From Pseudoleptotrichia goodfellowii (GTDB lineage Bacteria; Fusobacteriota; Fusobacteriia; Fusobacteriales; Leptotrichiaceae), in the NCBI RefSeq assembly GCF_007990505.1, contig NZ_AP019822.1, forward strand, positions 2,105,568-2,169,567: 64,000 bases of DNA, read 5' to 3'. Position numbers and translations under genes: made by a program. Below are positions 23,406 through 40,235 of this stretch, one piece after another. Positions within the stretch are counted from its first letter, which is position 1; every line of letters begins with the position of its first letter. Below the pieces are notes generated by a model that worked only from the letters and a program-made list of their open reading frames with translations, ran no database searches and had not been told where the DNA came from.

Positions 23406-23849
23406 TCAATTTTGATCTTTCATTATATCAATAATTTTATATAATTCTTGTTTTCTAAAATCATAAACTCTATTATAACTTTTCACGAAAGAAAAAAATG
23501 TAAAAAACAGCATAATTAATAATATTATTAAACATCCTTTTTTATAATTTTTAAAAGCACAATATAATAATATTATATACATAATTATGTATATATACAT
23601 GCATATATATATTTTATAAATTTCTAAGTAATATATATTCGGTAATATTAATATAAATAATAAAAAACTAAATAAATTTATTAGCAATATTCTATTTCTA
23701 TATTTTATATCAAACAAAATACGAAATGTTATTATTATATTAAAAACAAATAATATAAATTGCTCATAAATATCACTTCCTGAAAATAAAATTATACAAA
23801 ATATCCACAATAATAAGAGCATAATTCCTTTTTTTAATACTAAAACCAT
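23406..23849 (-). CDS. Predicted CdiI membrane immunity protein of the full-length CdiA
   Basis: About 147 residues, extremely hydrophobic, with four or five membrane segments and short charged ends. No family recognised. Start set at ATG 23847-23849, five bases after GGAGAG; a TTG four codons earlier is possible. It overlaps the cdiA stop by 10 bases. Position makes it the cognate immunity gene. An integral-membrane immunity protein suggests that the current CdiA toxin acts on the inner membrane, for instance by forming pores; this is inference. Confidence 0.65.
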   Translation of the reverse strand: MVLVLKKGIMLLLLWIFCIILFSGSDIYEQFILFVFNIIITFRILFDIKYRNRILLINLFSFLLFILILPNIYYLEIYKIYICMYIYIIMYIILLYCAFKNYKKGCLIILLIMLFFTFFSFVKSYNRVYDFRKQELYKIIDIMKDQN

Positions 23850-26800
23850 TTTTCTCTCCAAGCTCCTCCAATCTTCATATATTTCTTCAATATTTTCTTC
23901 ATGTTTATATTATTACTTCTATCTCTTCCCTTATATTCTAATTCAAACTTAAATTCTTTAGCTTTTTTTTCATTAACTAATTTTTTCATAGCGGAATCTT
24001 CAAAATTAATTGAAACATTTTTTAACCCTGTTTTTTCTTCAATTAATTTCTCATCAAACTTAACATTTTTATTGAGCATTCTTATTTTTCCAGGATGCCA
24101 GTCATACATATCTTCTATTGAATATTTGACATTCGATATTTCTATACTCACATTCTCTTGATCAATCTTCTTTACTTTAACTTTTGCTTCTGTTTTCAAT
24201 ATTGTAGCACCAAATGTGAAAAAAAAGTCTGCTGCTTTTTTTATATCTTCTTTTTCGGATATTTTAACAGATGTTTTCCAATAATCATTGAATTCTATAG
24301 ATTCGCCTATTTTCATTTTATCAAATCCTCCATAGTCTTTATTTATTTTATCAAGTGCTACTAATGGTGTTCCTTTAAATCCTGAGAACCATTCTCCACC
24401 CTCACTTTTTCCTGACTCTATGGAAAAAAATCTATTAATATTTCTCTGCTCTGCTTTTTTTACATCATCATAACCTCTATACCATTCTTCATCAATTTTC
24501 AATGATGTTCCTTTATTATTTAAAAAATGTTCCAAAGCTTCTGCTGAATGAATCAATCCCTGTTTTTTAGATTCTAATATATATTCTCTAGAATTCCTTA
24601 TTATTTCTTCTGCACTCATTTTTCCTAGTAACTTATATTCTTTATCTCCAACATGTTCACCAAAATCAGCTTTACTGTAATCTTTTCCATCTGACTTTGT
24701 CTGTATCTGTATATTTCCTTCCTGATACGTCTTATTAAAGAAGTCATTCGTTGCTCTTCCCGTACTTTCCAACCCTTTTTCTTCCGAACCTTCTGGTACT
24801 TTTCTTTGTCTTCCTTCTACTTTTCCTATTACATGACTGCCTTCTTCTGTTATCGTTCCGATTAACCCTGCTCTGTCTTGGTTTTCTTTTGCTTCTGTGT
24901 TTATTATTATCGTATGTTTTCCGTCTTCTCCTACATACGCTGTTCCTGCCTTTATTTTTCCTTTCTCATCTATTAGTTGCGGTGCTTTGTCCGGTGTCGT
25001 AAATACTATATTTATATCATAGCCTAAGTCTTTGTAAGTATCTTTTAGTGTCTTTGATATATCTTCCTGGGTTGTTGATACTTTCAGTCTTTCTCCTGCT
25101 ATGTTTTCTATGGTTCTTTGTATTCTTGTCTCACTTAACTGTCCTAAGAAGTTTCTGTTATCATCTCCTCTGTCATTTAATGATTCTTTTATTGCTCTTC
25201 CTATATCTCCTATCTCGTCTTTTGCTTTCCCTATATCTTCTTTAAGTTTTGAAGGGTTTGTTGCATAATCTATTGTCTGTCCTTCTATATACACATTTGT
25301 ACTGCTGTGGTCATCTCTTGTTGTTTCATTGGCTTTACTTCTGTCTCTGTTTATAGGGCTTCCTGTTGCACTTCCTATTTCTACATTTCCTATTACTGTA
25401 TGTCGTGTTATGCCTCCTTTTCTATGGCTTTCATTGTTTACGCCTATTCCATTGACTTTTGCTCCGCCTTTTCCAAAGTCCACTCCTATTGAGCCACCTG
25501 TTGTTGTTAAGTTATCATGATTATGTAAATCTTTTCCTTTGTATTCATTTATCTTTAGTTTTCCGTTTCCTTCCACTCCTATTATTCCTGCCGTATTTTC
25601 CACTTTCCCTATTGTAAGGTTACTTCCTTCTCCCAAGATAAATGTTGTCTGATTATCTACATAGGCTCTGCTTCCATTCGTTCTGCTTCCGCTTATTGAA
25701 GCTGAACTCGGTACTCCGTTTGAACCTATCCCCAGTGTTACTCCACTGCTACTTCCTGTTGTTTTACTTATGTTCTGTTTACTTTCTTCTACAAGGTTTT
25801 CTATTGTTCCTGTTACTTTGCCACCTTCCTGATTAAAGCCACTCAGTCTCATATTTTTTGTGCCGTTATGAACTTCTTCTACATTCGTAAATCTTCCATT
25901 CTGATACAGTGTTTCTTCTGTATTCATATTACTTCTTGTTACTGATACACTTCCACCGTTGCCTGTCGTCTGTATTTTATGTCCGTATCCTACTGTTGCT
26001 CCTGCACTTATTCCGAAACCTTTTGAATTACTGCTGTAACTGTTATGTAACTCTACTGCTTCTTTATTGATATTTTCTACATCATTATAGATGAATTTTG
26101 TATCTTTTGCCTGTGTTCCTATGTAGTTTATGTTCTTTACGTTATTATACGTTATGCTTGACTCTTCGTTAATGCCTTTTATTGTCGTTACTACTGCACT
26201 TTCTTCATGAGAGTTTGTTTCACTTTTTGATGTATTAAATCCTACATCCAATCCTATATTCGCATAGAAGTTGTTATTTGCCGAAGCATCTTTTACTCCC
26301 TGTTTTCCTACACTTCCATTTTTATCGTAGTTTCTTTGTCTGTTTCCTTGATTTCCTGCAAGGCCATGTACAGTACCGGTCATAAAGTTTACAGCATTTA
26401 CTGCTCCTCCTACTGTATCTCCTTTTTTTATCTGATCTACTGCTTCTTTTGCCTGTTTTACTCTGTCAAGGGCTGGACTTTTTACACTTGCTGTTACTCC
26501 TATATAGCTGCTCTTTGAGGTTGTCGATACATCTCTTGTGTCTTTTCTTGCTCCGTATGTTACATCTCCGTTATTTATTTCTATCTTTCCATGCTCAAAG
26601 TCTGTCGCTGTTATCTCTGCTCCGTTATTTAAAGTCGTATTATGTCCTACATGCAGACTTGATTTTGCATTTATTGTGCTTTTTTCATCATATGTATTTT
26701 TACTCTTTCCGTATCCTGCACTTACACTCGTTCCCTTTGCACTTGCACTGAAGCCGCTTTTCTTTTCTTCATTATAGTAAGTATTATGCAACTCTCTTGA

Positions 26801-29800
26801 GTCTGTTGTTACTTTTCCTCCTACAAAGCTGTTATCTCCTATATAGATATTACTTCCTATGCCTGTTACTGTTCCTGATATATTTGCATTTTCACCTATC
26901 TTAAAGTTACTTGCTGCATTTTCTTCTGTATGACTTTGGGTAAAGCTGCTTTCTCTATAGCCTAATCCTTTCTGTCCTGTTCTTTTCTCTACATCATATT
27001 CGTTTACTGCTGATTCTGCTTTTACATTGCCTACCTTCAGTCCTTTTCCGTCTTCTACTACAAAAGCTGACCCTTTAAGGTTTATATCTCCTACTTTTCC
27101 TGTTGCTTTTTCTGCTACTATTCCAGACCCTATATGTTCTTTTGACTTATATGTTTGATAGTTACTGCTGTTTCTTCCGAATCTGTCATCTCCATTTAGT
27201 TCAAGGGCATTTTCATTTATATTGCCTGTTAATTGTAACTCAAGATTTTTTGTCGCTAATGCTCCTCCTGTGCTGTTGTAATTGTTTGCCTCAAGATAAA
27301 CTGCCGATCCTGATATTTCTCCTATATTTCCCAGTTCTTCGTATTTACTTCTGAAGTTTTCTCCCAAGTCATAACCTTTTGTTACTTTTGTTCCGTTGTT
27401 TATTATATCTCCGTTTTTAGCTATTAATTCAGTTCTTTCTACTGATACTATTTTTCCGCCTATATTTTCTATATTGCCTTCTAAAGCTGTTACTCTTACT
27501 TGTCTTCCTGTTATTTCTGCTCTTTCATTTGCTACTGTTTCATTTCTTACTTTATTTGCCTTTACTAATGTTACTCCTGTTGTCGAACCTATTTTAAGTC
27601 CTTTATTTTCATAGTCTCCTTTTATATTTACCAATGTATAGTCGGTCCCGTACATTTTACTTCTTCCGTCTACTTCCAGTTTTTCTATTGTTGCTTTTGA
27701 TAAATATATTTTAGGTACTAATGTCTTTTTACCGTTTAATGTTTCATATTCATACCATATTATATCATTTTTTAAGTTATTTATCTGGTCTTTTGTTAAA
27801 GCTACTCCCTGTCTTAACTGTAAGTCTTTTTTCGCTGTTGTTGCATTATCTATCAGTTGTTTTGTCAACTTTTCTCCTGACAGTCCGTTTATGTATCTTG
27901 TTCCCAGTTTTTCCATTAATGTCTGTTCTATCAGCATATTATCATAATATGCATCTCCCAACAGTTTTACTCTGTCCCAGTCTTCCACATAACCCATTCT
28001 GCTTAGGAAGTAATCTCCTCCATAGTAGTTTCCTCTTGTTATGAACTCTGTTCTGTTTTCTATTACATATCTTGAACTCGGATCTGTTGAAGGAACATAA
28101 AGACTCCCTATATTTATTCCATTTCTTTGGCTTATTCCTGTGTTGCCGGTGTTTATTCCCGATATATTTATCGGGATTATACCAGTATTCTTTACTTCTG
28201 TTATTCCTGATATATTTTTTACTATTTCTATATTCTGTTTATCTACATTTTTTGAATATGTAGGATTTGTACTTAGTTTTCCTTTGGCTTCTTCATAAGA
28301 TTCTCCTACTATCTTGCTTGTATCTACCGACAGTATCTTTCCTTCTATTACACTTGGTTGTCCTGCTACATAAGCTGTTCTTATTGTAGGAGATAGGAAT
28401 CTGTAATATCCCACATAATATGTCGATTTCTTACTGTGTTTGCTTTTATGATACCACCACTTTAAGTTCTCCATTCCGTCTCTTAACTGTACGGGATTAT
28501 TTGTATCTATTGTTACTCTGTTTACTATTTTCGGTGCATCTACTTTTGTTAAGCCGTCTGATGATATTATTCCGTCTATATTGTTTACTTCTCCTGTGGA
28601 AGTTATTTTTACATCTCCTCCTGATATTACCGCAAACTCTGTCTGTGCTTCACTTTCTATTTTATTTACAAGGGGTATTATCGGAAATTCTGCTGAATTT
28701 AACATTATTCCGTCTTCATTTGCACGCATTCTGTTTTTTACTATATCTTCCATATTCTTTGCTATGTAAGACGGCTCTTCAGGTTTTTTCAATCCTGTAA
28801 GCCAATTATGAAACACCTGCCATTTATCCCCTTCATTACTCGGATCTGCATAATAGTTTCGCTCCCAGCTTCCAGGCTGATTTCTTTGCATCATCTTCGT
28901 TTCATCCGTATATATTGTTCCGTCCCATGCTTCCCAATACTTTTTATACTTTGTCAGATCTCCCGCTTTTCCTATGTTATTTACTACATTTGCCGTTATG
29001 TCTACTAATCTGCTTCCCTTTATTTTACCCACTTTATTATCTACTGTTGCGGCAGTTAAGTTTATTTTTCCCTGAGATAATATTTCAGCTCCGTTATTTA
29101 CTATACTTTCACTTGCATTGGCTGTAAGTTCGTTTGTTGTAAATATTGTTTTGCCTTTTGCATTTATTATATTTTTCCCTTTTAATGTCAGGTCATTTGC
29201 TGCGATTAAGTCATTATTTTCTATATTTTCTGTTGCTGTTATATTTCCTTTGCCTGTTTCCACTTTCTTATTATTTACAAACGTTTTTGATGTTGCTGTA
29301 AGTTCATTGGCGTTTATCTTGTTATCATTTCTTATCGTATTTGTTGCGTTTATTATTCCTTTTCCTACTGAAATGATATTTTCATTCACAAAGTCTGTCG
29401 TTGTTGAAGTATATTCATTAGCAGATATTTCTCCTTTATTTTCTGTTATCCCTGTTGCTTCGGTTATTAATTTATCTGCTTCTATCTTATTTTTATTTAT
29501 TATGTTCTGCGAAGAGACTGCTATATCATTTCCAATTATTAAACCGTTATTTGTTACATCTTTTATTGCCGTAACATCTGCTTTTACTACTGTCATTTTA
29601 TTATTATTTATTAAATTTTCAGTTTTTAACGTTAAATCATTTGAAGCTATTTCATTATTATTTATTATATTTTTATTTATATTGATTTTAGCTTTATCTG
29701 TTGATATTTTCCCATCGTTATTTACATTGTCAGCTTTCAATGTTAAGTTATCCACTGCCAATGTTCCTTTATTTTCAAAGTTTTTCTGTATATCAAAATC

Positions 29801-31588
29801 GGCAGATTTGGAATCTGTCTTTTCGTTATTCACAAAACTTTCGACTTTTATTTTCGCTTCATTTGAAGTCAGTTTCTTACTTGTTACATTTTTTGAATCT
29901 ATAATTATTTTATTCGCCTTTATTTCATTACTTGATATATCTTTTGAGGATATATTAAGATTCTCTGCCAAGATGTTTCCTTTATTATTTATATTATTGC
30001 TTATTGCAAGACTTATATTCTGTCCTTCTATGGAGTTTGAATCAAGATTTTCGGCTTTTATTTTTGCAGTATTTGAATATATTATATTACTGTCGATATT
30101 TTTTGTTGCATTCAAGTTAAGTTCATCTGAAATAATTTCATTATTTTTAATATCCCCGGTATTTACATTTACCTTACTTCCTGTTATATTTCCTGTATTT
30201 ATTATATTTCGGGATATATCAAGGTTTATATTTCGGCTTTTCAATTTATCGGTTGTAAGGTTTATTCCTTTTATCTCTGTATTGCCGGCTTCTATTTTAT
30301 TACTTGATATTGTTTCGCTGTTTATTTTCAGGTTATCTGCTGTTATCCCGTTACTGTTTAAACTTTTGGAATTAATATCAAGATTATTTGCAAGGATATT
30401 TCCTATATTATTTATGTTATTACTTATTGCAAGGCTTATATTCTGTCCTTCCATTACATTTGTTTTCAGGTTATTCCCCGTTATATTTACACTGTTTGCT
30501 GATATTTTGTTACTTTCTGTATTTCCTGTATTAAGTGTAAGGTTTCCTGCTGTAAGTTCGCTATTTTTAAAGTTTGATGATGATATATTTACATTTTGAG
30601 CTGTTATTTCTTTTCTGTTTTCATAGTCTTTTGCTGTTATATTCAGATTATTTGCATTTATTTTGTCTGTTTTCAGGTCTTCTGTTTGTATTTCCGCGTT
30701 TTTTGATATGATTTCTTTTATATCTGCATTACCGTTTATTTTCATTCTTATATCATTTTCCGATAATACACTTGATTTTAAGTTTACTCCTATCCCTTTT
30801 TCTGTCGATATGATGTTTACCTGTCCGTTTGAATAGATTGAGCCTAATGCTCCTCCGTTTAATGATAATGCAGGTTTATTATCTGCTGTTATTATGGGTG
30901 TTACTATTCCTGCAAGATTTACTTCATTCTGCCCCAGTATTATATTTACATCTTTCTGTCCTACTATTTTTCCTGCCAGTTCCTGTGTTCTTGTTATTAT
31001 ATCTACTCTTTCTACATTTGATATATCGAGTCCTTTTTCCCCTATTATTACTTTTCCGTCTCTTGTTGTAAAGGACACAACATCTCCATCCTGTATATTT
31101 ATCTTTCCTGTTACAAGGGCTGCTCGATTTACATTTATGAATCCTCCTCCGTTTACATATATTCCGTTCTCATTTGCAATAAAAAGATTTATCGGTCTTG
31201 GTGATAATGCCGATATGTAGCCTTCTATTTCACTTCTGTTTGCTCCTGTCACTTTAAATACTACTGTTCTTGCTTCCTGTCCTGGTCTTAGGTTAGGATT
31301 TGGATTTACTATTCCTGATAAGTGTCCTCTTCCCACTCCTGTATTATTTAATATTTCGACTCCCCTTTGGTCTACGTTGAATTCTTTAAAGGAGTTTACG
31401 GAAGTTCCTTTATCTGTAGGTGTGGATATATTTATTACAGGTACTCCGTTTGGAGCTCTGTCCACATTTACATTTTGAGGAACATTAGGGTCCACTTCTA
31501 TTCCTGCCCCGAATATATTAAAGGACATAAAAAGACTTAATAGAAGTGCTGCTATTACTCTATTTAATTCCTTTCTTATTTCTTTCAT
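23840..31588 (-). CDS. cdiA: CdiA/FHA-type two-partner secretion exoprotein with C-terminal toxin
   Basis: 2582 residues, start ATG at 31588 with AAAGGAG seven bases upstream. Signal peptide about residues 1-28 (RVIAALLLSLFMSFNIFGA). The TPS/haemagglutination-activity domain spans about 30-300, with FVDQRG-like FNVDQRGVEIL, NPNPNL and ANENGIYVNGGGFINVNRA. Residues ~300-850 are FHA-type repeats of about 20 residues (NxINNxGxIxAxxLxI), including a ~35-residue unit (EGQNISLAISNNINN) present twice. Further beta-helix follows to ~1900. Residues ~1970-2312 form the cassette-homologous segment and type A pretoxin ending FGEHVGD; the last ~270 residues are an unrecognised toxin with YDWHPGKIRM. No VENN motif. 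Exported by CdiB and displayed on the surface; the toxin is delivered on contact. Immunity gene overlaps the end. Confidence 0.93.
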   Translation of the reverse strand: MKEIRKELNRVIAALLLSLFMSFNIFGAGIEVDPNVPQNVNVDRAPNGVPVINISTPTDKGTSVNSFKEFNVDQRGVEILNNTGVGRGHLSGIVNPNPNLRPGQEARTVVFKVTGANRSEIEGYISALSPRPINLFIANENGIYVNGGGFINVNRAALVTGKINIQDGDVVSFTTRDGKVIIGEKGLDISNVERVDIITRTQELAGKIVGQKDVNIILGQNEVNLAGIVTPIITADNKPALSLNGGALGSIYSNGQVNIISTEKGIGVNLKSSVLSENDIRMKINGNADIKEIISKNAEIQTEDLKTDKINANNLNITAKDYENRKEITAQNVNISSSNFKNSELTAGNLTLNTGNTESNKISANSVNITGNNLKTNVMEGQNISLAISNNINNIGNILANNLDINSKSLNSNGITADNLKINSETISSNKIEAGNTEIKGINLTTDKLKSRNINLDISRNIINTGNITGSKVNVNTGDIKNNEIISDELNLNATKNIDSNIIYSNTAKIKAENLDSNSIEGQNISLAISNNINNKGNILAENLNISSKDISSNEIKANKIIIDSKNVTSKKLTSNEAKIKVESFVNNEKTDSKSADFDIQKNFENKGTLAVDNLTLKADNVNNDGKISTDKAKININKNIINNNEIASNDLTLKTENLINNNKMTVVKADVTAIKDVTNNGLIIGNDIAVSSQNIINKNKIEADKLITEATGITENKGEISANEYTSTTTDFVNENIISVGKGIINATNTIRNDNKINANELTATSKTFVNNKKVETGKGNITATENIENNDLIAANDLTLKGKNIINAKGKTIFTTNELTANASESIVNNGAEILSQGKINLTAATVDNKVGKIKGSRLVDITANVVNNIGKAGDLTKYKKYWEAWDGTIYTDETKMMQRNQPGSWERNYYADPSNEGDKWQVFHNWLTGLKKPEEPSYIAKNMEDIVKNRMRANEDGIMLNSAEFPIIPLVNKIESEAQTEFAVISGGDVKITSTGEVNNIDGIISSDGLTKVDAPKIVNRVTIDTNNPVQLRDGMENLKWWYHKSKHSKKSTYYVGYYRFLSPTIRTAYVAGQPSVIEGKILSVDTSKIVGESYEEAKGKLSTNPTYSKNVDKQNIEIVKNISGITEVKNTGIIPINISGINTGNTGISQRNGINIGSLYVPSTDPSSRYVIENRTEFITRGNYYGGDYFLSRMGYVEDWDRVKLLGDAYYDNMLIEQTLMEKLGTRYINGLSGEKLTKQLIDNATTAKKDLQLRQGVALTKDQINNLKNDIIWYEYETLNGKKTLVPKIYLSKATIEKLEVDGRSKMYGTDYTLVNIKGDYENKGLKIGSTTGVTLVKANKVRNETVANERAEITGRQVRVTALEGNIENIGGKIVSVERTELIAKNGDIINNGTKVTKGYDLGENFRSKYEELGNIGEISGSAVYLEANNYNSTGGALATKNLELQLTGNINENALELNGDDRFGRNSSNYQTYKSKEHIGSGIVAEKATGKVGDINLKGSAFVVEDGKGLKVGNVKAESAVNEYDVEKRTGQKGLGYRESSFTQSHTEENAASNFKIGENANISGTVTGIGSNIYIGDNSFVGGKVTTDSRELHNTYYNEEKKSGFSASAKGTSVSAGYGKSKNTYDEKSTINAKSSLHVGHNTTLNNGAEITATDFEHGKIEINNGDVTYGARKDTRDVSTTSKSSYIGVTASVKSPALDRVKQAKEAVDQIKKGDTVGGAVNAVNFMTGTVHGLAGNQGNRQRNYDKNGSVGKQGVKDASANNNFYANIGLDVGFNTSKSETNSHEESAVVTTIKGINEESSITYNNVKNINYIGTQAKDTKFIYNDVENINKEAVELHNSYSSNSKGFGISAGATVGYGHKIQTTGNGGSVSVTRSNMNTEETLYQNGRFTNVEEVHNGTKNMRLSGFNQEGGKVTGTIENLVEESKQNISKTTGSSSGVTLGIGSNGVPSSASISGSRTNGSRAYVDNQTTFILGEGSNLTIGKVENTAGIIGVEGNGKLKINEYKGKDLHNHDNLTTTGGSIGVDFGKGGAKVNGIGVNNESHRKGGITRHTVIGNVEIGSATGSPINRDRSKANETTRDDHSSTNVYIEGQTIDYATNPSKLKEDIGKAKDEIGDIGRAIKESLNDRGDDNRNFLGQLSETRIQRTIENIAGERLKVSTTQEDISKTLKDTYKDLGYDINIVFTTPDKAPQLIDEKGKIKAGTAYVGEDGKHTIIINTEAKENQDRAGLIGTITEEGSHVIGKVEGRQRKVPEGSEEKGLESTGRATNDFFNKTYQEGNIQIQTKSDGKDYSKADFGEHVGDKEYKLLGKMSAEEIIRNSREYILESKKQGLIHSAEALEHFLNNKGTSLKIDEEWYRGYDDVKKAEQRNINRFFSIESGKSEGGEWFSGFKGTPLVALDKINKDYGGFDKMKIGESIEFNDYWKTSVKISEKEDIKKAADFFFTFGATILKTEAKVKVKKIDQENVSIEISNVKYSIEDMYDWHPGKIRMLNKNVKFDEKLIEEKTGLKNVSINFEDSAMKKLVNEKKAKEFKFELEYKGRDRSNNINMKKILKKYMKIGGAWREKWF

Positions 31589-31614
31589 AATTTTCTCCTT
31601 TCGTGTTTCATATA

Positions 31615-31942
31615 TCTTCCTTTTTTACAAAAAAGGAAGCGAAAAAATTTGGCAACTCATATTTTACAGACTCAAAAATGTTCGTTCGCTATGAAAACAA
31701 AATAGTTGTTTTCATTTTACGCTCACTATCACATTTTTCACGTTGTAAAATCTGAATGTTGCAATTACAAATGTTTTCTTCTCTCCGACATTAAAATTTC
31801 ACTTCGAGAAATACGAATGTAACGTCATAAAAACAACTGTCTGAGCGTAGCGAGTTTGTTGTTTTTATAGTGGAATGATGTTATTTCGAGTTAGTAAAAT
31901 TTTAGTCGGTTATTTTTGGCTACTTTTTTCTTAAAAAAGTAG
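31615..31942 (-). repeat. Dispersed ~330-bp hairpin-flanked element, copy E1 (between cdiB and cdiA)
   Basis: Bounded by two A/T hairpins (31616-31639, CTTCCTTTTTT with AAAAAAGGAAG; 31920-31942, CTACTTTTTT with AAAAAAGTAG). The body holds two more inverted repeats: ATGAAAACAA/TTGTTTTCAT near 31688-31714 and ATAAAAACAA/TTGTTTTTAT near 31828-31868. It is closely similar to 51049-51387 and 56934-57261 in the same orientation. No ORF. It fills nearly all of the 361-bp gap between cdiB and cdiA, so its end hairpins could attenuate cdiA transcription. Confidence 0.85.
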
Positions 31943-31949
31943 ATTTATA

Positions 31950-33734
31950 TTAAAAAGAATATTTTACAGTCATACTCGCATAAACCTCATGATTTTTAGG
32001 TTTCACATACTCACTTTGACTGAATGCCTTTGCATAAGATACATCTATATCAAAATATGTACTTGAAAATCTTATCCCTATACTTCCTCCTTTTACTTTC
32101 CCAAGTCTGTATTCGGATTCATCATGATTATTCTTTGTTTCTCCTATTCCGTATGATATATACGGTATCAGTCTCTGTTTTTCATATCTGAATGTGTATG
32201 ATAGTTCTGCCAATACTGAATATCCGCTGTCTCCTGATATATTATCATATTGATATCCGGGTACACTTCCTATTCCCCCTATACTCACCTTTTCACTTCC
32301 GTAATTTACATCTTTTGACTTCTGCATTTCTGCTGTCAGTCTGAATGCTGCATTCTTTATGGGCTTATACCAGTAAAAACTTGCATTGTATCTTGTTGCT
32401 TCAGCTTTCGGTGCTGTTTCTCCTTTTTCTATATCTTTTTCTCCATGGAATATTCTCATTCCTTTACTGTATGATACAGATAAGCCGCTTACTCCCTTAA
32501 ACAATGCAAAGTCATAATTTACTCCCAATGTTCCTATTGTTAAGTTTCTGTTTGTCAGTTCCACATCTTCAAAATATGACTTACTGTTTTTTCTTTTTAT
32601 TTCTATATTTCCTGTAAGTTTACTTTTATTATCTCGATACAATATTTTTGATAAATTTGCCATCAGTGATGTACTTGATCCTGATAAATCATATATTGTG
32701 TTATACGCATAAGTTGACCTTCTGTATACACTCTTATTTCCGCTTAATACTAACGAGTAACTTCTGAAAGGTATTCTGTATGTTATATTCCACAGTAAAG
32801 TCTGTCTTTGAGGGGGAAGTAATCCGTGTATCTTAGGATCGTATCCCGGTACAGGTCCGCTCGGTGCTATTTGTCCCGGTAAAAGTTGTGATTCAGGTAT
32901 CTTCCAGCTTCTATCCACTTTCTTTCTTTTTACTCCCTGTATATTCATACTTAAAAGGTCATTTACTCCTAAGGGACTTTCTATATCAAGTCCTATCTTA
33001 AGTCTGTTTTTTCCTCCCTGTTCATCTCCGTAATTATTATATCCTACACTTACTGTTGTTTTTCCTTTTATTTCGTTTTTTGCAATTATATTAGAAAAGC
33101 CTTCTTTATCAGAGGGCTCTATGTTTACTGCAAAATTATTTGATGCATTTTTATTAAAATTATCTGTCATTGTATCTATATCTCTTATATTCAGCACATT
33201 ACCTTTAGTTTTGGGCTTATTAAAAAATATTTTTAATTTATCTGCAAAACTGTTGTTATTCAGTTTTATTTTATCTATTCTTCCCGTTATTACTTCAAAA
33301 GTAATTTCCCCTTGCTGTATATTGTCGGTATTAACATTAATTCTGCTTGTAACATATCCCTTTTTTACGAGTATTGCATTAGCTTCATTCAATAATATAT
33401 TTAATTCTTTCACACCTATTTCTTTATATTTGTATTTTTTACTTAACTGAAATTTATCTCCCTCAGATAAAAGTTTATCTTTATCTATTATTTGAAGGTC
33501 TTTTAATAGAAAAGTCGTTACATTTTCTTCTTCTACAGATTTAACTTCTATGTCAGGAGTAAATTTACTGCCTTCAATTTCTTTTCTTCTGTTTTCCTGT
33601 TCATTAAGTTGCCTTTCCTGTTCAAGTCTTTGCTGCTCTTTATCAAGAAGCCTGTTTGCCTCATCTTTGGGAGCTGCATTAACAACAGCCGAACACAAAA
33701 GAAGAAAAAAAGAAAGATTTTTTATTTTCTTCAT
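31950..33734 (-). CDS. cdiB: CdiB/ShlB-type outer-membrane TPS transporter
   Basis: Start taken at ATG 33732-33734, which has AAAGGAG seven bases upstream and yields a clean signal peptide (MKKIKNLSFFLLLCSAVVNA, cleaved before AAPKDEA); an in-frame ATG at 33776 would add 14 residues. 594 residues. After a Glu/Gln-rich N-terminal helix (about 25-65), POTRA domains cover about 65-220 (ILVKKGYVTSRINVNTDNIQ, ITGRIDKIKLN), followed by a C-terminal beta-barrel with alternating beta strands ending in MTVKYSF with the terminal Phe used by BAM. FhaC/CdiB proteins export one TpsA partner, here CdiA downstream. Confidence 0.93.
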   Translation of the reverse strand: MKKIKNLSFFLLLCSAVVNAAPKDEANRLLDKEQQRLEQERQLNEQENRRKEIEGSKFTPDIEVKSVEEENVTTFLLKDLQIIDKDKLLSEGDKFQLSKKYKYKEIGVKELNILLNEANAILVKKGYVTSRINVNTDNIQQGEITFEVITGRIDKIKLNNNSFADKLKIFFNKPKTKGNVLNIRDIDTMTDNFNKNASNNFAVNIEPSDKEGFSNIIAKNEIKGKTTVSVGYNNYGDEQGGKNRLKIGLDIESPLGVNDLLSMNIQGVKRKKVDRSWKIPESQLLPGQIAPSGPVPGYDPKIHGLLPPQRQTLLWNITYRIPFRSYSLVLSGNKSVYRRSTYAYNTIYDLSGSSTSLMANLSKILYRDNKSKLTGNIEIKRKNSKSYFEDVELTNRNLTIGTLGVNYDFALFKGVSGLSVSYSKGMRIFHGEKDIEKGETAPKAEATRYNASFYWYKPIKNAAFRLTAEMQKSKDVNYGSEKVSIGGIGSVPGYQYDNISGDSGYSVLAELSYTFRYEKQRLIPYISYGIGETKNNHDESEYRLGKVKGGSIGIRFSSTYFDIDVSYAKAFSQSEYVKPKNHEVYASMTVKYSF

Positions 33735-33791
33735 TAAAACTCCTTTCTTTAGTTTTATTAAATTTTCAAATTTCATTATATCTTCCTTAGA

Positions 33792-36405: not shown

Positions 36406-36434
36406 TTGACTGTTTTTTATTAATCGTGTTAAAT
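36406..36434 (+). promoter_or_regulatory. Promoter of the GHKL ATPase operon
   Basis: TTGACT (36406-36411), 17-bp spacer, TTAAAT (36429-36434), followed by an AAGGAGGG block at about 36450 that lies some 32 bases before the ATG of the first gene, too far for normal use. A short TTG-initiated leader (TTG TTT CAG TTA AAA ATA TGA) ends across the ATG at 36490. Confidence 0.55.
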
Positions 36435-36489
36435 TAGATATATAAAAATAAGGAGGGCAAAGCTGAATTAATTTGTTTCAGTTAAAAAT

Positions 36490-38409
36490 ATGAGTATAAA
36501 TTGGAATTTCCCCGAGAGTAACTACTCTCAAAGAATGGGAATAAGCGAAGCCGGGATTGAAACTTTCAGAGGTTCTCTTTTCGGCTCTCTGGCAAAGGAA
36601 ATATGCCAAAATTCCCTTGATGCACAACTGAATTTTTCGGAACCTGTAACCGTAGAATTTTCAAAATTCAACATTAAAACGGATAGTATTCCCGGATATT
36701 CAGAGCTGAATGAAGCTTTAAAAAAATGTTTACATTCGGATTCCGACGAAAAGGCGAAAAAGTTTTTTGAAAATGCCTGTAAAAAAATGGAAAATCCGAA
36801 AATAAGTATATTAAGAGCGAGCGACTTCAATACTACAGGATTAAGAGGTTCCAGAGAATCCAATATGTCTATCAATCCTTGGCAAAGTCTTGTAAAATCT
36901 TCGGGTATTTCGGATAAATCCTCTGTTTCCGGAGGAAGCTACGGTATCGGAAAATCAGCTCCTTTTGCATGTTCAGACATAAGAACAGTATTTTACTCTA
37001 CTTTTGATACGGAAAATGTTTTGGCTACTCAAGGTGTTTCCAGACTGATTTCCTTTCCTATAAGCGAAGATAGATTTACACAGGGTATCGGATACTACGG
37101 CGAAACTGAAAAAAATACTCCTGTTTTCAAGGATTTAAATTTGGATAATTCTTTTAAAAGAAAAGGAAGAAGAGGAACAGATCTTTATATATTGGGATTC
37201 AGAGAAGATTCCAAATGGAAAGAAGAACTTATTTTTGCCGTACTGGAAAATTTCCTTATATCGATTTATAACAGAAACCTTATCGTAAAAGTCGATGAAA
37301 CGGTTATTTCAAGAGAAACTCTGAAAGAAACGATAGACAATCTGAAAATAAGTGAAAAAAAGAAAAATCACTTTATCGTTGATTATTACAGAGTACTTCT
37401 TTCTACTTCCGGCAATAATGTTGTAGATAACAGTTTCCTTTTAGGCGATAATTTTAAAGATTTGGACGATTTTGAACTGAGAATTTTATATGACGACCTT
37501 AACAGAAAAGTTTTAATTTCCAGAAGTAACGGGATGAAAATCTTCGACTTGGACAGATTTCCGTCTTCACTTCAGTTTTCAGCGGTTTTCACTCTGAAAG
37601 GTGAAAAACTTAACGGATATTTCAGAGAAATGGAAAGCCCTCAGCATGACAGCTGGGAACCTGACAGACATTCGGACAAAAATGCAAAAAATATGCTGAA
37701 AGAGCTGAAACTTTTTATAAGGAATAAAATCGTAGAACTCGGAAAAAATGCCGTAGAGGATCAAATGGACGCAGACGGTATAGGAGATTTCCTGCCTGAT
37801 GACCTTATATTCCTTGAAAAGAAAAAAGAAGAAGATAAAATAGACAAAGTAAGCGACAAGACAAAAAAAATGGATCTAAAATCTATAGATTCGGTTCCGA
37901 GAAAAAGAAATGCGAAAACCACTCCGAAAAGCCGAGAAGAATTTAACGAATCTTCAGAAACGGGAAACTTTACCGAAGGAACTCCCGATGCAGGGGATGC
38001 TCCTTTCGGAATTGATGAAGTTGAAGAAAACAACCTTGAAAAAGAATTTTCCATAATTAAAGACGAAAACGGCTTTCTTAAAGTTAAGAAAATCTCTCTT
38101 GTTTCCGATGCGGACATCCGTCTTATTCTTTTAAATAAGAAGTTGAGAAAATACAAACTTGTTATTACTCCGAAAAAGAATATTCCCGACGCATGTGTGA
38201 GAATAAGCCTTTCGGGAGAGCAGAGCAATCTGCGTGCAAGAATAAGAAATGCTTACGAAAATGATAATGTTGCAAGTCCTTTAAGAATAAAACAGGATAA
38301 AATTTATATGAATAATCTTTATGAAAATCAGAAATTTTCATTGTCTTTCATATTAAATTATTCCGATGACTGCTCAATGGAGGTGGAACTGTATGAATAT
38401 AGAGTATAA
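36490..38409 (+). CDS. GHKL/MORC-like ATPase of a three-gene putative defence operon
   Basis: 639 residues. The N-terminal GHKL ATPase fold carries an N-box AKEICQNSLDA (E37, N41, D44), a G1-like box RASDFNTTGLRG (D112) and the ATP-lid motif GGSYGIGKSAPFA (148-160). A second domain to about residue 420 fits the transducer-like region of GHL ATPases. A charged, low-complexity linker (about 425-515) and a C-terminal beta-rich domain follow. This sequence type resembles the MutL/MORC-like ATPases found in restriction-modification-like clusters with Z1 helicases; here no methylase, helicase or nuclease is nearby. It overlaps the next gene by 17 bases. Defence function is an inference. Confidence 0.75.
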   Translation: MSINWNFPESNYSQRMGISEAGIETFRGSLFGSLAKEICQNSLDAQLNFSEPVTVEFSKFNIKTDSIPGYSELNEALKKCLHSDSDEKAKKFFENACKKMENPKISILRASDFNTTGLRGSRESNMSINPWQSLVKSSGISDKSSVSGGSYGIGKSAPFACSDIRTVFYSTFDTENVLATQGVSRLISFPISEDRFTQGIGYYGETEKNTPVFKDLNLDNSFKRKGRRGTDLYILGFREDSKWKEELIFAVLENFLISIYNRNLIVKVDETVISRETLKETIDNLKISEKKKNHFIVDYYRVLLSTSGNNVVDNSFLLGDNFKDLDDFELRILYDDLNRKVLISRSNGMKIFDLDRFPSSLQFSAVFTLKGEKLNGYFREMESPQHDSWEPDRHSDKNAKNMLKELKLFIRNKIVELGKNAVEDQMDADGIGDFLPDDLIFLEKKKEEDKIDKVSDKTKKMDLKSIDSVPRKRNAKTTPKSREEFNESSETGNFTEGTPDAGDAPFGIDEVEENNLEKEFSIIKDENGFLKVKKISLVSDADIRLILLNKKLRKYKLVITPKKNIPDACVRISLSGEQSNLRARIRNAYENDNVASPLRIKQDKIYMNNLYENQKFSLSFILNYSDDCSMEVELYEYRV

Positions 38410-39259
38410 ACTGTATCCTTATCCGGTGCTGAATTATTTTTCGGATGATTATATAAACTCGGTCTTTACTTCAAACTTAAAACTCGATAAACTGGGAAAC
38501 GGCATAATTTTTGAATTGACTGCAAATACTGATGACGAAGGATTAAAAGAGCTTATCGGGAAAGGATTGGCGGAATATGTTTTTCATATAGAATGTTCTT
38601 CCACTTCTTACAGAAATATTGTTAAATCAGCTACAGGTACCGAGACTGTAACGATTCCCGAATCCAAACTGAACAATAGAGTAAATGTATGTTTTTTCAT
38701 CGTTGCAAAAAAAGAAATCGAAAATTACTCCAATGTAAATTTCAATCCCGATTATGAGGGAATTTCATTTACTATTGAAAAGGCGAATATTCTTGCTATT
38801 GCTAAGCAGTATAATGTGGAAATCGAAAAGGAAAAAGACAATCTTGCCCAAGTTCCTTCAATATTTCTTATAATAAAAAGAGAATCGGACAGAAAAGACG
38901 GAATAGAAATTGAGATGCTTCAGGACAAACTGCAGATTTCCCTTTCAAAAAAAGATTACGAGCATTACGCTCTTCTTTCCAAAGGAAATTATCAGGCGTT
39001 ACTTCATTCTTCGATTATATTTCCTGCACTGATTTACGTTTTTGAAAATCTTAAAAAGTCCGATTTGGAAATTTACGAAGACTTTAACTGGTTTAAAACT
39101 ATAAAGAAAGTATTAAATAATATAGACATTGAGCTTGATAAAGAATCTCTGGAAAGGGAACTTTCTTACAATCTTGCCCAGAAAATAATAAACTTTCCCG
39201 TGAGCAGAAGTCTTCAAGTAATGACTTCGCTTGAAACAGAAGAGGAGGAAATCGAATGA
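38393..39259 (+). CDS. Uncharacterised partner protein of the GHKL operon (second gene)
   Basis: 288 residues. Start set at ATG 38393, nine bases after GGAGG and overlapping the ATPase gene by 17 bases; an ATG at 38366 lacks an SD. The N-terminal half is beta-rich (YPYPVLNYFSDDYINSVF, ECSSTSYRNIV, NPDYEGISFTIEKANILA) and the C-terminal half helical, with an acidic tail (LETEEEEIE). No membrane segment or catalytic motif recognised. I recall the same protein type next to GHKL ATPases of this kind but know no assigned name. The overlap on both sides indicates that the three products are made together and probably form a complex. Confidence 0.65.
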   Translation: MNIEYKLYPYPVLNYFSDDYINSVFTSNLKLDKLGNGIIFELTANTDDEGLKELIGKGLAEYVFHIECSSTSYRNIVKSATGTETVTIPESKLNNRVNVCFFIVAKKEIENYSNVNFNPDYEGISFTIEKANILAIAKQYNVEIEKEKDNLAQVPSIFLIIKRESDRKDGIEIEMLQDKLQISLSKKDYEHYALLSKGNYQALLHSSIIFPALIYVFENLKKSDLEIYEDFNWFKTIKKVLNNIDIELDKESLERELSYNLAQKIINFPVSRSLQVMTSLETEEEEIE

Positions 39260-40002
39260 AATTACAATTTTTAAAGGAAATACCTCTTGAAACATTAAGA
39301 AAAAATATAGAAAACAATTTTTCAAATTACGCATTGCCTACAAACGAATGGATATTCAGTTTTTTCGGAGATGTTTCTCCTTTTCTCGATTTTAAAAAGG
39401 AAGTGCCCGATTTTGAACTTAATATGTCTTATGAAAAGCCTGAAAAAAGTGATATAGAAAACATTAAAATTCTTTACAGCTCACTGAAAGATTTATCTGT
39501 AGTCGAAGCTACAAGCGAAAGTTTATGGGTCGGAATGGCTCACAGCACTTTTTGGAATTATATGCAGTACCGTTTATATCTTGATAGAAACAAGTCATAT
39601 ATAAATAATATAAAGAATTCATTTTTCTTTTCCAAAGGGAGAAAACGTTCTCTTATAGAACATACTCTTTCAAGATTATGGTGGGCAGGAAAAATGGCTT
39701 ATGACGAAAACAGGGAAGATCCTTTTGAGCTTTTGGAAGTATTCAACACTGACTTCAGAACGAAACTTCTTTATCTGTTTTCAAGTAATTTCACTAATAA
39801 TCCGACTATTACAAGGGCATTTTTATCTTCCGTACTGGATTTTGAAAAGAACGGTGTTAAAATTAAAAGAGAAATATTTAATGAAACTATTATGTATCTC
39901 AATATTTTAGGGGGAACTTATATCCTTGATTATTTTGAAGAAAGTGAACTGAAAGACAAGATTACTAAAAAAATTGATGATCTTTTACTGGCAAGTGATT
40001 AA
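39256..40002 (+). CDS. DUF6339-like protein, third gene of the GHKL operon
   Basis: 248 residues, overlapping the preceding stop by ATGA. Helical, soluble. The segment SLKDLSVVEATSESLWVGMAHSTFWNYMQYR followed by RSLIEHTLSRLWWAG matches my memory of the DUF6339 family, which is found with GHKL ATPases in defence-type clusters; a profile search would be needed to be sure. No catalytic residues stand out. The operon ends here; degenerate repeats fill the 345 bp that follow before the glpK terminator. Confidence 0.65.
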   Translation: MKLQFLKEIPLETLRKNIENNFSNYALPTNEWIFSFFGDVSPFLDFKKEVPDFELNMSYEKPEKSDIENIKILYSSLKDLSVVEATSESLWVGMAHSTFWNYMQYRLYLDRNKSYINNIKNSFFFSKGRKRSLIEHTLSRLWWAGKMAYDENREDPFELLEVFNTDFRTKLLYLFSSNFTNNPTITRAFLSSVLDFEKNGVKIKREIFNETIMYLNILGGTYILDYFEESELKDKITKKIDDLLLASD

Positions 40003-40020
40003 AAAGCTCCAACTCCTAAT

Positions 40021-40137
40021 TCGTGAGGACTCGCCGTCCTTATACTTTTGCTGATAATCCTGAATTTTGTATACTTAAAAATGTCCGTTCACAAAGTCGT
40101 GAGGACTCGCCGTCCTCACACTCCTGCAGGCAACCCC
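40021..40137 (-). repeat. Two diverged copies of the boundary hairpin repeat
   Basis: Two short units (40021-40053 and 40098-40137) with the stem GTGAGGAC/GTCCTCAC (perfect in the second, one mismatch in the first) and the neighbouring ACTCCTGC-type sequence. They have the same layout as the cassette-boundary repeat with both stem arms changed together (ATGAGGGC/GCCCTCAT to GTGAGGAC/GTCCTCAC). Confidence 0.6.
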
Positions 40138-40235
40138 AAATTTTACATACTCAAAAATGCCCGTTCGCTATGAAAACAAAAAAGATGTTTTCATAACGCT
40201 CACTAACACATTTTTCACGTTGTAAAATTTGAAGG
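40138..40235 (-). repeat. Fragment of the dispersed ~330-bp element (E4)
   Basis: Matches the first third of copy E1/E2: CTCAAAAATGCCCGTTCGC, the ATGAAAACA/TGTTTTCAT inverted repeat and CACATTTTTCACGTTGTAAA. The rest of the element is absent. Confidence 0.7.

What the first reader, a model, noticed from the sequence alone, without database searches (positions are those of the whole stretch)
36406..40002. Compact three-gene GHKL ATPase system
Three tightly overlapping plus-strand genes encode a MORC/MutL-like GHKL ATPase with intact N, G1 and lid motifs, an unnamed partner and a DUF6339-like protein. As I recall, similar ATPases occur with Z1 helicases and methylases in restriction-like clusters. 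Here the trio stands alone with its own promoter, next to diverged repeats, which suggests a minimal, possibly undescribed, defence system.
Basis: partly seen in the sequence, partly recalled or inferred. Interest (0 to 1): 0.75.

Follow-up and report, generated by a model that had tools for sequence, protein, structure and literature searches.

The report
Catalogued three-gene GHKL ATPase defence candidate
Three overlapping genes in a Leptotrichia-like bacterium form a tightly linked, horizontally spread module built around a MutL-like ATPase; it is already listed (untested) as candidate anti-phage system PDC-M33, and here it is the version that lives without a partner DNA methylase.

Summary
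A (36490-38409), B (38393-39259) and C (39256-40002) are intact, overlapping, under strong purifying selection (dN/dS 0.05-0.09) and have a promoter conserved in three congeners. The trio is not undescribed: it matches all three subunits of PADLOC's untested candidate PDC-M33 (E 1e-217, 1e-103, 1e-94), and A carries the ExxxH signature reported for the 2008 paraMORC2 family. All three genes occur together in 75 of 76 loci with enough DNA. The trio is patchy (A in 9 of 100 relatives) and occurs on lactococcal and other plasmids. About 40% of loci have a C5-cytosine methylase within about three genes; others have Z1 helicases, type I or Dam genes, AbiG, or AlwI or MutH/Sau3AI nucleases. The ATPase tree splits into a methylase-linked and a methylase-free branch. 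The window belongs to the methylase-free branch, and its genome has no C5 methylase and no Z1 gene. B is predicted to be a beta-sandwich plus helices; C is an all-helical fold with no PDB match. No nuclease was recognised. Most likely it is an ATP-dependent, restriction-like anti-phage module; no phenotype has been tested.

The parts
36406..36435 (+). promoter of the trio, TTGACT - 18 nt - TG.TAAATT
   Evidence: pattern hit (not above shuffles); letters conserved in three congeners
36450..36457 (+). Shine-Dalgarno sequence AAGGAGGG, 32 nt before the ATG
   Evidence: sequence; conserved in three congeners
36461..36483 (+). small hairpin between Shine-Dalgarno and start codon
   Evidence: same 7-bp stem predicted in three congeners, -5.9 kcal/mol, z about -1.2; weak
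36490..38409 (+). gene A, 639 aa: GHKL (MORC/MutL-like, paraMORC2-type) ATPase, PDC-M33A
   Evidence: PADLOC E 1.4e-217; invariant motifs
36598..36624 (+). N box, residues 37-45 (E37, N41, D44)
   Evidence: 100% in 59 homologues at E37, N41 and D44; aligns with MutL ENSLDA
36823..36843 (+). G1-like motif, residues 112-118 (D112)
   Evidence: D112, T115, G117 and L118 100%
36931..36954 (+). G2/lid motif, residues 148-155 (GGSYGIGK)
   Evidence: G149, G152, G154 and K155 100%
37633..37647 (+). ExxxH motif E382-H386, signature reported for paraMORC2
   Evidence: E382, P384 and H386 100%; motif described in PMC2292703
38393..39259 (+). gene B, 288 aa: PDC-M33B; predicted Ig/FN3-like sandwich plus helical C-terminus
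   Evidence: PADLOC E 4.5e-103; model pLDDT 90.3, pTM 0.55; fold matches
39256..40002 (+). gene C, 248 aa: DUF6339, PDC-M33C; predicted all-helical fold without PDB match
   Evidence: Pfam E 8.5e-54; PADLOC E 4.7e-94; model pLDDT 94.6, pTM 0.90
39999..40150 (+). two 76-nt direct repeats, 72% identical, with terminator-like hairpins; probably trio terminator region
   Evidence: core sequence occurs at only one other place in the genome

Best explanation
The trio is one obligate three-protein machine, PDC-M33, acting as an ATP-dependent, restriction-like anti-phage (or anti-plasmid) module. Shown from sequence: the three genes are co-inherited, overlapping (so probably translationally coupled) and under purifying selection; A keeps the GHKL ATP-site motifs; the family is patchy, horizontally moved, and in many relatives paired with DNA methylases and restriction genes. 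Inferred: A dimerises on ATP and closes as a MutL/MORC-like clamp around invading DNA; B (beta-sandwich plus helices) bridges A to C or to DNA; C (DUF6339) is the recogniser or effector. In the methylase-linked branch the trio would be the restriction side and the C5 methylase marks self. In the methylase-free branch, to which the window belongs, self/non-self would be judged without linked methylation, for example by DNA ends, replication structures, phage modifications or a phage protein. I put about 0.7 on defence and about 0.4 on the clamp/bridge/effector division of labour.
For: PADLOC PDC-M33A/B/C hits (all 59 aligned A homologues match the A model). A, B and C together in 75 of 76 loci. 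A and B in the same genomes of Fusobacteriota and C in the same five of the family. Patchy within the family (5 of 33) and in different chromosomal sites in three genera. ATPase tree mixes Fusobacteriota among Clostridia, Spirochaetota and others. C5 methylases: 46 of 337 ORFs within 3 genes of the trio against 0 of 436 ORFs 5 or more genes away. Cassettes made only of a small ORF, A, B, C and a C5 methylase with no known restriction enzyme among the neighbours (L017, L066, L058, L068). Z1 helicase directly upstream in L023 and L036; type I, Dam, N6/N4 methylase, YhcG and Res-PLD genes at others. Lactococcus conjugative plasmid: AlwI enzyme, trio, AbiGI/AbiGII. Priestia plasmid: trio, MutH/Sau3AI endonuclease, dcm. 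dN/dS 0.05-0.09. Precedent: VcSduA, a GHKL ATPase fused to a nuclease, gives ATPase-dependent phage defence (PMC12137116).
Against: No phenotype exists; PDC-M33 is a guilt-by-association candidate. In the window the neighbours are housekeeping genes. The trio is at the same site beside the M50 gene in the congeners and present in all three sampled genomes of the genus, and in seven selenomonads it lies between queA and tgt, which is unusual for a defence island. No nuclease or other effector activity was recognised in A, B or C; A's C-terminal third was not modelled. The GHKL assignment rests on motifs, not on a significant profile match.
Confidence: 0.66

Rival explanations
1. Orphan restriction half: the trio is the leftover of a methylase-linked R-M-like system that lost its methylase and persists by inertia, or uses an unlinked adenine methylase in trans.
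For: Relatives pair with C5 or adenine methylases; the genome has one D12 (Dam-type) and one intact N6/N4 methylase elsewhere.
Against: Strong purifying selection on all three genes. The methylase-free state is a whole supported branch of 39 rows without a single C5 methylase, not a recent loss. No C5 methylase in the genome.
Confidence: 0.15
2. DNA-repair or chromosome-maintenance module (MutL/MORC-like structural ATPase) rather than defence; defence neighbours are coincidental passengers of mobile islands.
For: MutL-like N box; housekeeping neighbours here and in selenomonads (queA/tgt) and others; Vsr next to some trios.
Against: Patchy distribution; plasmid carriage; methylase enrichment of 46/337 against 0/436.
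Confidence: 0.13
3. Regulatory or toxin-like module silenced in the host, with abortive infection as outcome rather than direct restriction.
For: Neighbouring AbiG on the lactococcal plasmid; C has conserved polar and aromatic residues (N69, W91, R106, W143, D225 invariant) and an unknown fold.
Against: No toxin or nuclease motif found. It overlaps the best explanation and cannot be separated by sequence.
Confidence: 0.25

Closest known systems
PADLOC PDC-M33 (phage defence candidate, multi-gene, subunits A/B/C)
   Same: All three proteins match full length
   Different: No difference seen; PADLOC gives no mechanism and no paper in the held library names it
paraMORC2 GHKL ATPases of Iyer, Abhiman and Aravind 2008 (PMC2292703)
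   Same: ATP-site motifs, an ExxxH motif after the motif block, largely Gram-positive and sporadic distribution, methylase/Vsr/helicase neighbours in relatives
   Different: Here no methylase, helicase or nuclease is linked, and no C5 methylase or Z1 protein is in the genome
Mza (mzaABCDE) and the Z1-nuclease-cytosine methylase systems of PMC9523054
   Same: Relatives of the trio come with Z1 and cytosine methylase; the large HhH/sigma4 protein in some trio loci weakly resembles MzaA
   Different: A, B and C do not hit any Mza model; no Z1 or C5 methylase here
VcSduA / paraMORC3-Shedu
   Same: GHKL ATPase proven necessary for phage defence
   Different: VcSduA is one protein with a fused PD-(D/E)xK nuclease; the trio has B and C instead and no recognised nuclease

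Membership tests
PDC-M33 (PADLOC-DB 2.0.0) | Homologues of subunits A, B and C | tested here: met
   E 1.4e-217, 4.5e-103, 4.7e-94, each over nearly the full profile
PDC-M33 (PADLOC-DB 2.0.0) | Genes adjacent as one locus | tested here: met
   overlapping genes 36490-40002
PDC-M33 (PADLOC-DB 2.0.0) | Anti-phage activity | not testable with these tools
   candidate only; no paper found
GHKL ATPase superfamily | N box, G1 and G2 ATP-site motifs in order | tested here: met
   E37/N41/D44, D112/G117, G149-G154/K155 100% in 59 homologues; G1 is a DFNTTGL variant of DxGxG
GHKL ATPase superfamily | Significant profile or structure match to GHKL proteins | tested here: inconclusive
   one of 59 homologues hits HATPase_c_3 at E 0.022; only the N box aligns with MutL, P 0.015; A was not modelled
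paraMORC2 | Conserved ExxxH in the S5 domain | tested here: met
   E382 and H386 invariant, motif as in PMC2292703; placement in an S5 domain inferred, not modelled
paraMORC2 | Falls in the published paraMORC2 alignment or tree | not testable with these tools
   the paper's additional file is not held
DUF6339 | PF19866 match over its gathering score | tested here: met
   182.4 bits against 23.2, for protein C
Type II/III restriction-modification system | Cognate DNA methylase linked to the restriction part | tested here: not met
   no methylase adjacent and no C5 methylase in the genome
Mza system | MzaA-E homologues incl. Z1 | tested here: not met
   no Mza model hit by A, B or C; no Z1 domain in the genome

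The most novel reading that the evidence does not exclude
A-B-C is a restriction-type machine of a new kind: a MutL/MORC-like clamp plus a beta-sandwich adaptor plus a helical effector of unseen fold (DUF6339), with no known nuclease. One branch is licensed by a partner cytosine methylase, as in compact cassettes of small ORF, A, B, C and methylase; the other, including the window, tells self from non-self with no linked methylase at all.
Probability: 0.35. Interest if true: 0.8.

Novelty: new member of a known kind. Interest (0 to 1): 0.5.

Why it matters
PDC-M33 is in a 2023 catalogue without a described mechanism in the papers searched. The comparison here turns it into testable statements: A-B-C is an obligate unit, half of the family is tied to cytosine methylases, and the other half, including this locus, has no such partner. 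If the trio restricts phage, it would be a methylase-optional MORC-like defence machine and a bacterial model for how MORC ATPases, which silence transposons in eukaryotes, act on foreign DNA. DUF6339 would gain a function and probably a new fold.

Tried and rejected
'Core fusobacterial operon': rejected, 5 of 33 in the family and 9 of 100 relatives. 'Undescribed': rejected, PADLOC PDC-M33. 'Z1/methylase partner elsewhere in this genome': no Z1 and no C5 methylase; one D12 and one intact N6/N4 methylase exist but unlinked. Empty-site comparison: the M50-YigZ block is conserved in relatives without the trio, but the other flank is rearranged and glpK is not adjacent, so no clean empty site could be shown. 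PDB sequence profiles for A, B and C gave nothing significant. hhalign of A against MutL aligned only the N box. Foldseek and VIA of B gave only generic Ig/FN3 sandwiches, Z at most 8.4; of C nothing, Foldseek best E 1.1, VIA Z at most 6.8, BFVD none; this does not prove a new fold. PHROGs: no significant hit for A, B or C. Repeats after C: core at only one other place in the genome, so not a mobile repeat family. No paper was found for DUF6339 or PDC-M33; paraMORC2 is named only in the 2008 paper.

Full report
CHECK OF THE OBSERVATION. The window carries three overlapping plus-strand genes: A 36490-38409 (639 aa), B 38393-39259 (288 aa, from the ATG inside A) and C 39256-40002 (248 aa). The window lies at 2105568-2169567 of a 2.29-Mb one-contig genome. 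The nearest named relative of A is from a Leptotrichiaceae isolate; a Pseudoleptotrichia species is my inference. The A/B overlap of 17 nt is found in 53 of 83 homologous loci, so the overlap, and probably translational coupling, is a family trait. The promoter (36406-36435) is not significant as a pattern, but it is preserved in all three genomes of the genus amid drifting bases. Two 76-nt, 72% identical repeats follow C; their core occurs at one other place in the genome, and one copy scores as a terminator.

WHAT THE PROTEINS ARE. PADLOC identifies A, B and C as PDC-M33A, B and C over their full lengths, and all 59 aligned A homologues match the A model. C is Pfam DUF6339. A has no significant Pfam match; one of 59 homologues hits HATPase_c_3 at E 0.022, and profile comparison with MutL aligns only the N box. 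The GHKL assignment therefore rests on the ordered, invariant motifs. A also has an invariant E382-x-P384-x-H386, the ExxxH that Iyer and co-workers gave as the signature of paraMORC2 (PMC2292703). AlphaFold2 models from 56 and 49 homologues: B has pLDDT 90.3 and pTM 0.55, with a beta-sandwich (about residues 12-146, generic Ig/FN3-like matches, Z at most 8.4) followed by a helical part. C has pLDDT 94.6 and pTM 0.90, is nearly all helical, and has no significant match in PDB or viral models. No nuclease signature was found in any of the three.

OBLIGATE TRIO. From 80 loci fetched by an A profile plus relatives, every locus with at least 2.2 kb after A has A, B and C, except one very distant case in which an unrecognised 260-aa ORF sits in C's place: 75 of 76. 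Within Fusobacteriota A and B hit the same nine genomes, B with one extra weak hit; in the family, C hits the same five. Between the window and a congener dN/dS is 0.09, 0.05 and 0.08 for A, B and C, like the neighbours; synonymous sites are near saturation, so these are rough.

DISTRIBUTION. The trio is in 5 of 33 genomes of the family and 9 of 100 relatives, but in all three members of the genus. It sits beside the same M50 gene in the window genome and its congeners, and elsewhere in two other genera. The ATPase tree places Fusobacterium-family members separately among Clostridia. Homologues occur on 23 plasmids, including mobilizable and conjugative ones. This is an accessory, horizontally moved module.

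CONTEXT IN RELATIVES. C5-cytosine methylases make up 46 of 337 ORFs within three genes of the trio and 0 of 436 ORFs five or more genes away (Fisher p 4e-18; loci are related, so the p-value overstates). A conserved ~76-aa protein lies just before A in most of the 37 loci that have it. Some loci are compact cassettes of this small ORF, A, B, C and the methylase without a recognisable restriction enzyme beside them. Others add Vsr, EcoRII-C, FokI-type or GmrSD domains or a ~900-1100-aa protein with HhH/alpha-CTD and sigma-4 domains. A Z1-domain protein is directly upstream in L023 and L036. Other trios lie near type I, type IIG, Dam, N6/N4, YhcG or Res-PLD genes. On a Lactococcus conjugative plasmid the trio lies between an AlwI enzyme and AbiGI/AbiGII; on a Priestia plasmid it is followed by a MutH/Sau3AI endonuclease and dcm.

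TWO BRANCHES. The tree of 86 A proteins separates a branch of 37 rows, 33 of them methylase-linked (support 99), from a branch of 39 rows with no C5 methylase (support 90); the label needs 7 changes against 28 in shuffles. The quick method and midpoint drawing make deep placement provisional. The window is in the methylase-free branch, near Z1-linked Desulfosporosinus L023. Its genome has no C5 methylase and no Z1 protein, though it has one D12 and one intact N6/N4 methylase elsewhere. In seven selenomonad-type loci of the same branch the trio sits between queA and tgt (gene names from sequence recognition).

MECHANISM. Shown: co-inheritance, overlap, ATP-site conservation, selection, mobility and R-M context. 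Inferred: A acts as an ATP-gated clamp, as GHKL relatives do; B bridges; C recognises or executes; methylation marks self where a methylase is linked. Precedent that a GHKL ATPase can drive phage defence is VcSduA, where ATPase and nuclease mutants lose activity (PMC12137116). The executing activity in the trio is unknown. Direct restriction and abortive infection cannot be separated from sequence.

NOVELTY. The system is already catalogued as PDC-M33 and its ATPase type was described in 2008, so the window holds a new member of a known, untested kind. The branch split, the obligate-trio count and the fold results are, as far as the held papers show, not published. Interest 0.5.

Noticed in passing
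L029:1914-2144 and 36 other loci, directly or a few genes upstream of A: A conserved ~76-aa protein (RTNKIIDMIxLLGNCSN...YEY...KIFxAIExEL) precedes the trio in 37 loci and has no Pfam or PADLOC match; it is absent in the window.
   Followed up: partly
L051:13508-16465 and 18 other loci: A 900-1100-aa protein with HhH/RNA polymerase alpha-CTD repeats and a sigma-70 region 4 domain, usually right after C; weak match to MzaA.
   Followed up: partly
L018:5231-15904: A very distant A-B pair plus a 260-aa ORF in C's place lies between two MotA/MotB-like gene pairs; one was tested and hits ZorA of Zorya.
   Followed up: partly
L077, L078, L080, L082, L086-L088: In seven selenomonad-type genomes the trio sits between queA-like and tgt-like genes, an odd stable home for a defence candidate.
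   Followed up: no
L039:3661-5223, L070:12805-14349, L089:12746-14176, L094-L096, L098: Protein C carries varied C-terminal extensions of 100-270 aa, as if its tail were a swappable specificity or effector part.
   Followed up: no
36450-36483: The Shine-Dalgarno is 32 nt before the ATG of A with a small hairpin between them, the same in three congeners; may regulate translation.
   Followed up: partly
G000:C1:145061-146755 (L165, L166, L169): A D12 (Dam-type) methylase next to an N6/N4 methylase reading frame broken by stops: looks like a decayed restriction locus.
   Followed up: no
23840-33776: A 2582-aa haemagglutinin-like exoprotein gene with a 608-aa TpsB-like transporter gene upstream, a two-partner secretion pair near the trio.
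   Followed up: no
L073:15656-17131: A second GHKL protein (HATPase_c_3) lies near the trio and a C5 methylase in Paenibacillus.
   Followed up: no
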